Shown: positions 25,321 through 52,183 of the stretch, piece after piece
How the letters are laid out: each line of letters starts with the position of its first letter
Position numbering within the stretch: the stretch's first letter is position 1
NCBI RefSeq assembly: GCF_006517175.1
Contig: NZ_CP041186.1
Location: 1,267,001-1,331,000, forward strand
DNA: 64,000 nucleotides
Direction of reading: 5' to 3'
Origin: Persicimonas caeni
GTDB taxonomy: Bacteria; Myxococcota_A; Bradymonadia; Bradymonadales; Bradymonadaceae
Notes under the pieces: generated by a model
What the model was told of the DNA's origin: nothing
Seen by the model: only the letters and a program-made list of their open reading frames with translations
Database searches by the model: none
Made by a program: the position numbers and the translations under genes

Positions 25321-27099
25321 TCAGCCGCCGATGCAGCTCGAGGTGCCGTCGCCGTTGGGAGCGCACACGCCCGAGCAGCAGTCACCGTTCTGCTCGCAGG
25401 TGACCCCGAGCGGGCGACACGGAGGCTGGCAGATGTTGTCGCGGCAGTTACCCAAGCAGCAATCGCCGTCTTCGGTGCAGCTCTCGTTCTCGAACGAGCA
25501 CTGCGGGCAGCCTTCGTCGATTTCGCCGTCACAGTTGTTGTCGACGCCGTCGCAGACCTCGGGAGTGCAGTCTTCGCATCCCTCGTCGATTTCACCATCA
25601 CAATCGTTGTCGAGGTAGTCGCAGATTTCCTCGCCGCTCTCCTGGCAGTCTGTGGCGCAGCCCATGGTGATTTTAAGGGGGCTGGGCGCGTTCGGGTCGG
25701 CGTTGCGCAGCGTATTGCACGACTGGCCGTGCAGCGTGAGCGTGTTGGCGCCCGCGTCGTAGGTATAACCGTTGGAAGCATCCTGGCTGACCGGGGTGCC
25801 CTGGATCTCGACCCAGATCTTCGCGGGGTCCTCGGGCGGCGGGTCGAGCACGTAGGAACACGAGATGACCTGATCGTTGATGTTACTGAGCACGTTGACC
25901 AACTGACCCGGGCTGTCGGCGGTGTAGTGGCTGTTGGTGCCGCCACGCTGGGCGATCTGGTCGAGGTTCGAGGGGTTGGCGCCCGAGTTGAAGCCGATGA
26001 CGTAGACCGGCACGCCGGCGTTGTAGAGCGCGCCCGCCTGGTTGGCCGCGTAGGTCTGCTCGCCGCAGCCGTCGTTGGGGTTACCGTCGGTGATCAGCAC
26101 GACGACCTTGGGGCGAACCGCATCCAGGCTGTCGCTCGGGTCGCTGTAGAGCGACTGGTTGCGCACCTGATAGAGCGCACCTCCGGTCGGGGTGACGCCC
26201 CCGGCGCTGACGCCCGAGTACGAGGACTTGATCGTGCTGGCCGGGTGCAAGCCCATGTCCAGAATCTCACTGCCTGCCGCGGTGCACTCGTTGCTGCCCG
26301 CAGGGTAGATGAGCATGCCGAAGCGCACGGTGCTCGACAGTTGGTCGGCCATGGTATTGAGCGCCGACTTGGCCTCCGAGAGGCTGCCTCCGGACATCGA
26401 GCCCGACTTGTCGAGAATGATGTAGATATTCGGCTCGACCTCGGTGAACTGACCCTGCTGGTTGCCGCAGATATCGCCCACCGGCGTCGGGGTGCACGCG
26501 TCGCCCTGCCCGTCGCCGTTCGAGTCGGCCTGGTCGTAGTTGGCGGCGTTCGGACAGTTGTCACACGCGTCGCCCAGCGAATCGCCGTCGGCGTCACCCT
26601 GCCCCGGGTTGGAGGTGTTCGGGCAGTTGTCCTCGATGGTCGGGGTGCCGTCGTTGTCGTGGTCGAGGGTGGAGTCGTAGCTCGGCCCGTCGGCGCAGGC
26701 ATCGCCCTGGCCGTCGCCGTCACTGTCAGCCTGGTCGAAGTTGGCCGCGTCGACACAGTTGTCGCACGCGTCACCGACGCCGTCGCCGTCACCGTCGGCC
26801 TGGTCGGGGTTCGACGCGTTGGCACAGTTGTCCAGCCGGTTGGGGATGTTGTCCCCGTCGTTGTCGTCCCACGGACGCGCCGGCTCGGTGTCCTGATCTT
26901 GGACATCACCAGCGTCGGTGCCACCACCACCGCCGTCGTTGTCGCCGCCGGACGGCTCACACTCGCCGGTCACGGCATTTTGCTCTTCGCCATCGGCGCA
27001 GCTACTGCTGTTCGAAACGTTGGCCGTGCCGTCAGTGCTACACGCCGCCAAGCCCCAAACGAACAATAGCACGACGATCTTCGCGATGATCCGATTCAT
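25321..27099 (-). CDS. VWA-domain lipoprotein with thrombospondin type 3 and MopE-like repeats
   Basis: 592 residues. Lipobox G-L-A-A-C. Residues about 75-200 hold thrombospondin type 3 calcium-binding repeats (D-x-D-x-D-G-x-G-D-A-C-D-N-C). A von Willebrand A domain follows (about 220-400) with a complete-looking MIDAS start D-K-S-G-S-M-S near 227 and I-T-D-G-N near 337. The C-terminus has two MopE-like C-D-N-N/D-C-D-G-E-I-D-E-G-C motifs and a Cys-rich tail. Together these suggest a calcium-dependent surface adhesin or ligand-binding protein; the ligand is unknown. GGGAG precedes the ATG. A 511-bp leader region with two long hairpins lies upstream. Confidence 0.9.
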   Translation of the reverse strand: MNRIIAKIVVLLFVWGLAACSTDGTANVSNSSSCADGEEQNAVTGECEPSGGDNDGGGGGTDAGDVQDQDTEPARPWDDNDGDNIPNRLDNCANASNPDQADGDGDGVGDACDNCVDAANFDQADSDGDGQGDACADGPSYDSTLDHDNDGTPTIEDNCPNTSNPGQGDADGDSLGDACDNCPNAANYDQADSNGDGQGDACTPTPVGDICGNQQGQFTEVEPNIYIILDKSGSMSGGSLSEAKSALNTMADQLSSTVRFGMLIYPAGSNECTAAGSEILDMGLHPASTIKSSYSGVSAGGVTPTGGALYQVRNQSLYSDPSDSLDAVRPKVVVLITDGNPNDGCGEQTYAANQAGALYNAGVPVYVIGFNSGANPSNLDQIAQRGGTNSHYTADSPGQLVNVLSNINDQVISCSYVLDPPPEDPAKIWVEIQGTPVSQDASNGYTYDAGANTLTLHGQSCNTLRNADPNAPSPLKITMGCATDCQESGEEICDYLDNDCDGEIDEGCEDCTPEVCDGVDNNCDGEIDEGCPQCSFENESCTEDGDCCLGNCRDNICQPPCRPLGVTCEQNGDCCSGVCAPNGDGTSSCIGG

Positions 27100-27254: not shown

Positions 27255-27426
27255 AATGTTGATTCGCGTGTAAAAGTCTCCCGTCGGCATCGCCGGCTGA
27301 TTTTCCCGCTGTCTTCGCCGCCAATACTCGACGATGCTCCCCGCATCGCCTGCGTTTGTCGGCTTCGATACCGGCAAAATCACCTCGCCGAGCCTCGGTC
27401 CGACCTCTTACACACGAATCAATGTT
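27255..27426. repeat. Long hairpin element 1
   Basis: Outer arms of 19 nt (27255-27273 and 27408-27426) pair at 16 of 19 positions. Inside, GTCGG/CCGAC, TGATTTT/AAAATCA (27298 and 27376) and an apex CGATGC-TCCCC-GCATCG (27332-27348) are nested in the right order around one centre near 27340. It may be a structured RNA or a small palindromic mobile repeat. Confidence 0.6.
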
Positions 27427-27448
27427 AAAGAATGTGTGAAGCGCGCTA

Positions 27449-27606
27449 AGTGCAAACACGGAAGTTGTGTGCGATTGAGGGCGAGCGCATCGCCGGGAGG
27501 CCAAGGAGAGAGAACGCAGTGGTAGCAGCGCTACATCAAGTTCTTTCGACGCAGGCATCGTGGCGATGAGCCGACCTCAAAGCACCAGAATTTCCGTGTT
27601 TGCACT
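27449..27606. repeat. Long hairpin element 2 with perfect 15-bp ends
   Basis: Perfect 15-bp inverted arms (27449-27463 and 27592-27606), then nested pairs TTGAGG/CCTCAA (27475 and 27575), CATCGCC/GGCGATG (27488 and 27562), AGAAC/GTTCT (27511 and 27540) and an apex GTAG-CAGCG-CTAC (27522-27534). The internal loops are near-symmetric. It begins 4 bp beyond the stop of the membrane protein gene. Confidence 0.7.
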
Positions 27607-27610
27607 CAAA

Positions 27611-28141
27611 TCAACGACCCAGCCAAACGAGGAGATCGGGTGAGGCGAAGCTGTACCCCAGCACCAGCAAGAGCCCGAGCACCACGGTGTTGACGACCGT
27701 TTGGCGGTCGTGTGCCAGCGGCACGTCCGTTTGCTTGGCGAGAAACCAAAGCAAGAGCACGCCGAGCAGAAAATTGGCGCCCGTGCGAAGGATCTGCAGT
27801 TCGACGGTCGACCACTGCCCCGCCAGGCCAAACGTCGCTGCTTGGATAAGGCCCCAGACAGTCCCGCAGAGTCCCAACGCGAAGATCGCGGCTCGCGCCT
27901 CGAAGTTGCGTGCGATAAGCAAGAACGCGACGCCGAAGGTGGCCGCCGGCCCGAGCAAAAAGCCGCTGTAGAGCAAGACATACGGTGAGACCTCGGCAAA
28001 CGCGGCCTTTTGACGCTCTTTGGCCGTGTGCTGGCGCATGAAGCGTCGCATGGCGTCGCGCTCGGCCGCCTTGCGTGCCTCGGACCACTCTCGGTCGATG
28101 TCGAGCCCGCTCTCTTCCCCACTCTCTTCCTGCGACTTCAT
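27611..28141 (-). CDS. Small four-helix membrane protein, unknown function
   Basis: 176 residues from ATG 28141 (GAGG upstream; the longer frame from 28228 has an implausible Arg/Gly-rich start). The first 60 residues are charged and cytoplasmic, with a basic helix. Four hydrophobic segments follow at roughly 62-85, 92-115, 122-140 and 148-172. I do not recognise the family. It is divergent from the pyruvate dehydrogenase operon with about 260 bp between them. Confidence 0.65.
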   Translation of the reverse strand: MKSQEESGEESGLDIDREWSEARKAAERDAMRRFMRQHTAKERQKAAFAEVSPYVLLYSGFLLGPAATFGVAFLLIARNFEARAAIFALGLCGTVWGLIQAATFGLAGQWSTVELQILRTGANFLLGVLLLWFLAKQTDVPLAHDRQTVVNTVVLGLLLVLGYSFASPDLLVWLGR

Positions 28142-28260
28142 GCCACGCCTCGATTGATGCACCAACCCCACCTCGCGCCCGACCATCCTACCCCACCCCG
28201 CCCGACCGCCCAAGCACCAACGAGGCATCCCGGCTTTAAGACGGCCACCACCGTTGCAAC

Positions 28261-52112: not shown

Positions 52113-52183
52113 TTCGGGTGCTAGGATTCGAACCTAGGATGGCGGGACCAAAACCCGCTGCCTTGCCACTTGGCCACACCCGA
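52113..52183 (-). tRNA. tRNA-Gln (anticodon UUG)
   Basis: Reading the minus strand, a 7-bp acceptor stem TCGGGTG/CACCCGA closes the cloverleaf; the anticodon stem GCGGG/CCCGC bears loop TTTTGGT with anticodon TTG, and the T arm is CTAGG-TTCGAAT-CCTAG. CCA is not encoded. Located upstream of prs, possibly co-transcribed. Confidence 0.95.

What the first reader, a model, noticed from the sequence alone, without database searches (positions are those of the whole stretch)
27255..27606. Two adjacent long nested hairpins in a 511-bp gene-free gap
Elements 27255-27426 (172 nt) and 27449-27606 (158 nt) each fold on one centre: outer arms of 19 nt (16 matched) and 15 nt (perfect), then several shorter complementary pairs nested in the correct order to a tight apex loop. 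In the second element the internal loops are almost symmetric (11x11, 7x6, 6x5). Chance nesting of four to five pairs on one axis is unlikely. They may be structured RNAs, small palindromic mobile repeats, or a leader controlling the VWA lipoprotein. I do not recognise a known RNA class.
Basis: seen in the sequence. Interest (0 to 1): 0.62.

Follow-up and report, generated by a model that had tools for sequence, protein, structure and literature searches.

The report
Two palindromic mobile repeats, one superfamily
The two hairpins are copies of short, gene-less jumping DNA elements that share one folded core but carry different end sequences; about a dozen related predatory bacteria carry many copies, which suggests that the core survives while the ends that transposases recognise change.

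Summary
Both elements fold far better than shuffled sequence on either strand (z -6.5 and -11.5 on +; -8.9 and -8.0 on -) and fill about 330 of the 511 gene-free bases. They are dispersed repeats, not a single-locus leader. Element A has three more copies in this genome, element B two. Neither matches Rfam at gathering thresholds.

B ends in the terminal repeat of an IS630-family insertion sequence present in five nearly identical copies here. A covariance model built from A and its relatives also finds B (E 3e-9). A sequence-only profile made without B scores it 25.9 bits; the best of 2000 hairpin-preserving shuffles scores 6.7. So A and B are two subfamilies of one ~160-bp hairpin superfamily, matched in 17 of 57 genomes of the class, at least 41 hits in this one.

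Pairing is kept by double substitutions, with few and strand-symmetric wobble pairs, so the constraint looks DNA-level. Relatives show 3-bp TNA duplications, and one insertion is absent from three sibling species. The core is conserved while the outer ~20 bp differ between subfamilies.

Best reading: non-autonomous palindromic mobile elements (MITE-like); B moved by IS630, the mover of A unknown. New variant of a known kind.

The parts
27255..27426 (+). Element A: palindromic mobile repeat, whole (ends TGATTCGCGTGTAA...TTACACACGAATCA; flanked by AATGT/ATGTT, i.e. a 4-bp ATGT duplication, or 6-bp AATGTT if the terminal T/A is counted to the target)
   Evidence: fold z -6.5; copies at genome positions 3251220 (92%), 3345234 (91%) and 6929643-6929745 (internal deletion)
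27272..27409 (+). Conserved hairpin core of element A, 70-80% identical to copies in five genomes of another genus of the family, where other outer arms are attached
27330..27356 (+). Apex of A with the conserved asymmetric internal loop CTCGA / CCTGCGTT around the terminal stem
   Evidence: sequence; superfamily alignment
27449..27606 (-). Element B: palindromic mobile repeat of the same superfamily, oriented on the minus strand relative to A; outer arms AGTGCAAACACGGAA are the terminal repeat of the resident IS630-family element
   Evidence: fold z -11.5; copies at 6423389 (98%) and 6533421 (95%, right end lost); covariance model 47.6 bits, E 3e-9; sequence-only profile 25.9 bits against a maximum of 6.7 in 2000 hairpin shuffles
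27447..27448 (.). TA at the left end of B (IS630-type target); the right flank reads CA, so the duplication is not intact
27576..27609 (-). 34 bp of B's end (terminal plus subterminal) 85-88% identical to the end of the IS630 element
25321..27099 (-). Downstream gene: VWA-domain, thrombospondin-type-3-repeat lipoprotein
27611..28228 (-). Upstream gene, predicted membrane protein without a family match; its stop codon lies 4 bp from the end of B

Best explanation
The two hairpins are separate insertions of non-autonomous, gene-less palindromic mobile elements (MITE-like). They are two subfamilies of one Bradymonadia-wide superfamily: a ~120-nt hairpin core of conserved sequence and shape, framed by outer arms of about 20 bp that serve as terminal inverted repeats and differ between subfamilies. 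B's arms are the terminal repeats of an IS630-family insertion sequence resident in this genome, so its transposase, supplied in trans, most likely moved B. A's arms match no autonomous element found, so its mover is unknown or gone. Shown: repeat nature, shared core, arm-to-IS630 identity for B, covariation, TNA duplications in relatives, an empty site in sibling species. Inferred: trans mobilisation, and that the core is kept because it folds as DNA.
For: Copies of A and B elsewhere in the genome. B's terminus AAGTGCAAACACGGAAG is the end of a ~1156-bp element in five 99.8-99.9% identical copies with TTAA at both ends, encoding an IS630-family transposase (NF033545, PF13358). Core homologues in relatives. 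A1 alignment of 19 copies: 95.1% of cells paired, 30 of 51 pairs with double changes, 107 double-changed cells against 27.8 +/- 4.5 in shuffles and 6-14 in slid controls. B joins by covariance model and by sequence-only profile. Relatives with AGAAGC ends: 12 of 21 listed copies carry identical TNA 3-mers on both sides; the middle base agrees in 14 of 21, p 7e-5. One 163-bp copy present in one species is missing at the same gene junction in three sibling species.
Against: No empty site could be shown for the window insertions themselves, as no second genome of the genus was among the 26 genomes of the order searched. B's own flanks do not show a clean TA duplication (TA left, CA right; TA/GA in its 98% copy). 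No autonomous partner for A was found, and PF13586 (DDE_Tnp_1_2) gave no match above cut-off in six genomes. Transposition was not observed. Strong double-change covariation could come from copying one arm onto the other rather than from selection.
Confidence: 0.85

Rival explanations
1. A and B are structured RNA genes or a leader RNA that regulates the VWA lipoprotein gene; the shape is conserved because the transcript must fold.
For: Very stable folds and strong covariation; they lie upstream of the VWA gene.
Against: Copies stand beside unrelated sequences; wobble pairs are few and strand-symmetric (17 GT against 12 AC in A1; 38 against 57 in the superfamily), whereas RNA selection on one strand should favour GU over AC; no Rfam match at gathering thresholds; A and B lie in opposite orientation at this locus.
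Confidence: 0.06
2. They are hairpins moved by a single-strand (HUH, REP-associated or IS200/IS605-type) transposase that reads the folded strand; the arms vary because only pairing matters.
For: Core shape and a conserved asymmetric internal loop near the apex (CTCGA / CCTGCG, mostly 90% or more on the CTCGA side) are kept while the arm sequence changes; hairpins with mismatches are typical substrates of such enzymes (own knowledge).
Against: Relatives show 3-bp TNA duplications, which HUH transposition does not make (own knowledge); B's arms are those of a DDE-type IS630 element; elements are 160 bp, not 20-40 bp. Presence of a Y1/RAYT transposase in this genome was not tested.
Confidence: 0.07
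3. The elements are no longer or never mobile; they are kept and spread by the host as bidirectional transcription terminators or mRNA-stabilising 3' ends, since many abut stop codons.
For: B begins 4 bp after a stop codon; one relative fills the gap between two convergent genes (-2 and 5 nt).
Against: Target duplications and species-specific presence argue for insertion. The scan found only three short terminator-like stems in the region, none of them the whole hairpins. A terminator role could be secondary to insertion, so it does not exclude mobility.
Confidence: 0.12

Closest known systems
RUP (repeat unit of pneumococcus)
   Same: Short intergenic gene-less repeat whose terminal repeats match those of a resident IS630 element and which inserts at TA (PMC2229807); B works like this.
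   Different: 107 bp; no report in that text of a hairpin core shared with elements of other ends; no sequence relation was tested.
Correia / NEMIS element (Neisseria)
   Same: About 100-200 bp MITE whose transcripts fold into stem-loops (PMC2229807, PMC10969869).
   Different: Other sequence, other host; promoters and IHF site described there were not found or not tested here.
YPAL / RU-2 (Yersinia, ~168 bp)
   Same: Long intergenic palindromic repeat of nearly the same size, with target duplications and empty sites between species (PMC2229807).
   Different: Known from Yersinia in that text; termini without TA; not described as one core with several sets of ends.
REP / REPIN repeats with RAYT transposase
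   Same: Extragenic palindromes that pair as DNA.
   Different: REPs are 20-40 bp (PMC3733652, abstract); these are ~160 bp and show TNA duplications.

Membership tests
MITE (miniature inverted-repeat transposable element) | Short element with terminal inverted repeats, many dispersed copies | tested here: met
   158-172 bp, arms of 14-19 bp; copies in own genome; at least 41 superfamily hits
MITE (miniature inverted-repeat transposable element) | Target-site duplication | tested here: inconclusive
   Window A: ATGT/ATGT; relatives of A: TNA in 12 of 21 listed copies; B: TA/CA, not intact
MITE (miniature inverted-repeat transposable element) | Empty site in relatives | tested here: inconclusive
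   Met for one relative of A; not testable for the window copies with the genomes held
MITE (miniature inverted-repeat transposable element) | No transposase of its own; autonomous partner with same ends | tested here: inconclusive
   Met for B (IS630); no partner found for A
IS630-derived MITE (RUP-like), element B | Terminal repeat shared with an IS630 element of the same genome | tested here: met
   Terminal 17-19 bp identical on one end, 34 bp at 85-88% on the other
IS630-derived MITE (RUP-like), element B | Insertion at TA with TA duplicated | tested here: inconclusive
   TA at left end of both near-identical copies, CA or GA at right ends
REP / REPIN | 20-40 bp palindrome units | tested here: not met
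   Elements are ~160 bp
REP / REPIN | RAYT (Y1 transposase) in the genome | not tested
Known RNA family (Rfam) | Match at gathering score | tested here: not met
   Only a tRNA at 52113-52183 in the window

The most novel reading that the evidence does not exclude
A modular mobile-element superfamily: a hairpin core kept by selection on its folded DNA form changes its transposase-recognition ends over time, so that the same core is carried by unrelated transposases (IS630 for B, a TNA-target transposase for relatives of A, others elsewhere). Cores 65-76% identical carry arms that are mostly no more alike than chance.
Probability: 0.4. Interest if true: 0.72.

Novelty: new variant of a known kind. 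Interest (0 to 1): 0.5.

Why it matters
Bacterial MITEs are normally read as deletion derivatives of one insertion sequence, sharing its ends. Here a core is shared by elements with unrelated ends, across at least three families of a class of predatory bacteria, and its pairing is kept by double changes. If confirmed, this gives a testable case of a non-autonomous element that outlives its transposases by exchanging its ends, and asks what the core does. It also gives a repeat family to mask and to date insertions with, in genomes where none was described in the papers searched.

Tried and rejected
Rfam family: none at gathering threshold. Single-locus leader: rejected by the copies. Partner IS for A by its 20-bp end, up to 3 mismatches: only the element's own copies in this genome, two chance-like hits in the order; one hit in an unrelated clostridial MAG in genome contigs, not followed. 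IS5-type transposase (PF13586) as mover: no match over cut-off. The other multi-copy element picked up by the IS630 profile (1634 bp, 10 identical copies) has ends unlike any arm seen. Autonomous element with the G021 arms: none among the loci read. Plasmids and phages: no match in 'distant' mode; B's end motif absent from viral contigs. Hypothesis that unpaired core positions are more conserved than paired ones: not supported overall (p 0.31). A first comparison of arm identities was biased by alignment register and was replaced by a shift-tolerant one. Gene context by simple ORF calling was too noisy for statistics.

Full report
What is there. The 511-bp gap lies between the stop codon of a predicted membrane-protein gene (27611, minus strand) and the start of a VWA lipoprotein gene (27099, minus strand). 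It holds two long imperfect palindromes at the coordinates given. Both fold far below dinucleotide shuffles on the plus strand (z -6.5 and -11.5) and on the minus strand (z -8.9 and -8.0). No Rfam family other than a distant tRNA reaches its gathering score in the window.

They are repeats. The window lies in a single 8,047,206-bp contig. A search of that genome finds A at 3251220 (92%), 3345234 (91%) and, with an internal deletion, at 6929643-6929745; and B at 6423389 (98%) and 6533421 (95%, one end lost). The paper on Persicimonas caeni YN101 gives 8,047,306 bp, and genome G002 has exactly the length given there for Bradymonas sediminis FA350, so the host is very likely P. caeni or a near strain (inference).

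Element B and IS630. The end of B, AAGTGCAAACACGGAAG, occurs at the end of a ~1156-bp element present five times at 99.8-99.9% identity (two in tandem; its other end is AAGTGCAATCACATAAT), always with TTAA at the boundary. It encodes an IS630-family transposase, in two frames. B's other end shares 34 bp with it at 85-88%. B is thus placed to be moved by this transposase, as RUP is thought to be by IS630-Spn1 (PMC2229807). The weak point is the target duplication: TA on the left, CA (window) or GA (copy) on the right.

Element A and its relatives. The interior of A is 70-80% identical to many copies in five genomes of another genus of the family, most of which end in AGAAGCnnnCAAA instead of TGATTCGCGTGTAA. 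In the 21 copies listed by script, 12 have the same TNA triplet on both sides, and the middle base agrees in 14 (p 7e-5; one of the 21, L289, is probably a spurious match). For one 163-bp copy the same gene junction in three sibling species lacks the element. Copies of 55-124 bp with the same ends exist. So relatives of A insert and duplicate their target. The mover of A was not found.

Pairing is conserved. In 19 aligned copies 95.1% of cells are standard pairs; 30 of 51 pairs show a double change, 107 double-changed cells against 27.8 in shuffles and 6-14 in slid controls. Wobble pairs are rare and strand-symmetric: 900 Watson-Crick, 17 GT, 12 AC; in 41 non-redundant superfamily members 1805, 38 and 57. 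A transcript from one strand should tolerate GU more than AC; this is not seen. The constraint is therefore more likely at the DNA level: either selection on the extruded hairpin or copying of one arm onto the other. The data do not separate these two.

One superfamily. A covariance model of A and relatives hits 17 of 57 genomes of the class, with at least 41 hits in this genome, 33 in G016, 32 in G019, 24 in G021 (another family of the order) and a few in another family of the class (only 50 candidates per genome are scored, E-values are rough, and some palindromes hit on both strands, so numbers are approximate). The same model finds element B on the minus strand over its full length, 47.6 bits, E 3e-9. 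As hairpin shape alone might cause this, a sequence-only profile without B was tested: B scores 25.9 bits over residues 32-139, the best of 2000 shuffles that keep its hairpin and composition 6.7; a different palindromic family with the same IS630 ends scores nothing. So A and B share a core and differ in their ends.

Core against ends. Members are mostly 158-167 bp and share an apex with an asymmetric internal loop (CTCGA on one side, CCTGCGTT on the other) and CTCCCGTCG / CTCGGTCCG near the base. The outer arms fall into many unrelated types. With register shifts allowed, pairs with core identity of 65-75% have arms at 0.49 mean identity, near the shuffled-arm mean of 0.43, and 73% of them at or below 0.5; above 75% core identity arms are usually alike. 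This fits replacement of the ends, or very fast arm evolution.

Function at this locus. B starts 4 bp after a stop codon, and other copies also sit at gene ends, so effects on termination or mRNA stability are possible but untested. Nothing links the pair to control of the VWA gene.

Verdict. An ordinary kind of thing (palindromic MITE-like insertions) in an unusual form: one conserved, covarying core with several sets of ends, widespread in a class of predatory bacteria and, in the papers searched, not described.

Noticed in passing
G000 213762-213980, 1008779-1008997, 5630959-5631169, 6017559-6017774 (L026, L070, L027, L067): A second palindromic family of ~220 bp with the same IS630 ends as B but without the superfamily core.
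   Followed up: partly
L065 1080-2218 and the four other IS630 copies: The IS630 transposase is split into two ORFs in different frames in all copies; possibly programmed frameshifting.
   Followed up: no
L305-L314 (G000): A 1634-bp insertion sequence in ten identical copies with ends containing GTGTCAnGATAGTTGTCGC.
   Followed up: partly
L014-L025 and other hits (G000): About a dozen copies of a hairpin subfamily with ends AGGTTCTGTTCGACAACTC lie inside a longer, ~500-bp repeated unit whose flanks are also conserved.
   Followed up: no
L270 and G021 C782:39195-39242: 48-bp minimal copies consisting almost only of the two ends.
   Followed up: no
L068 1514-1676, L069 246-408: IS630 copies inserted directly beside a superfamily hairpin; L078 shows the hairpin without the IS.
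   Followed up: no
L072-L084: Further repeats with related ends (AAGTGCAWWCACGGARG...) and a common interior GTGCGAGTGCTTCCAGCTCTCGC.
   Followed up: no
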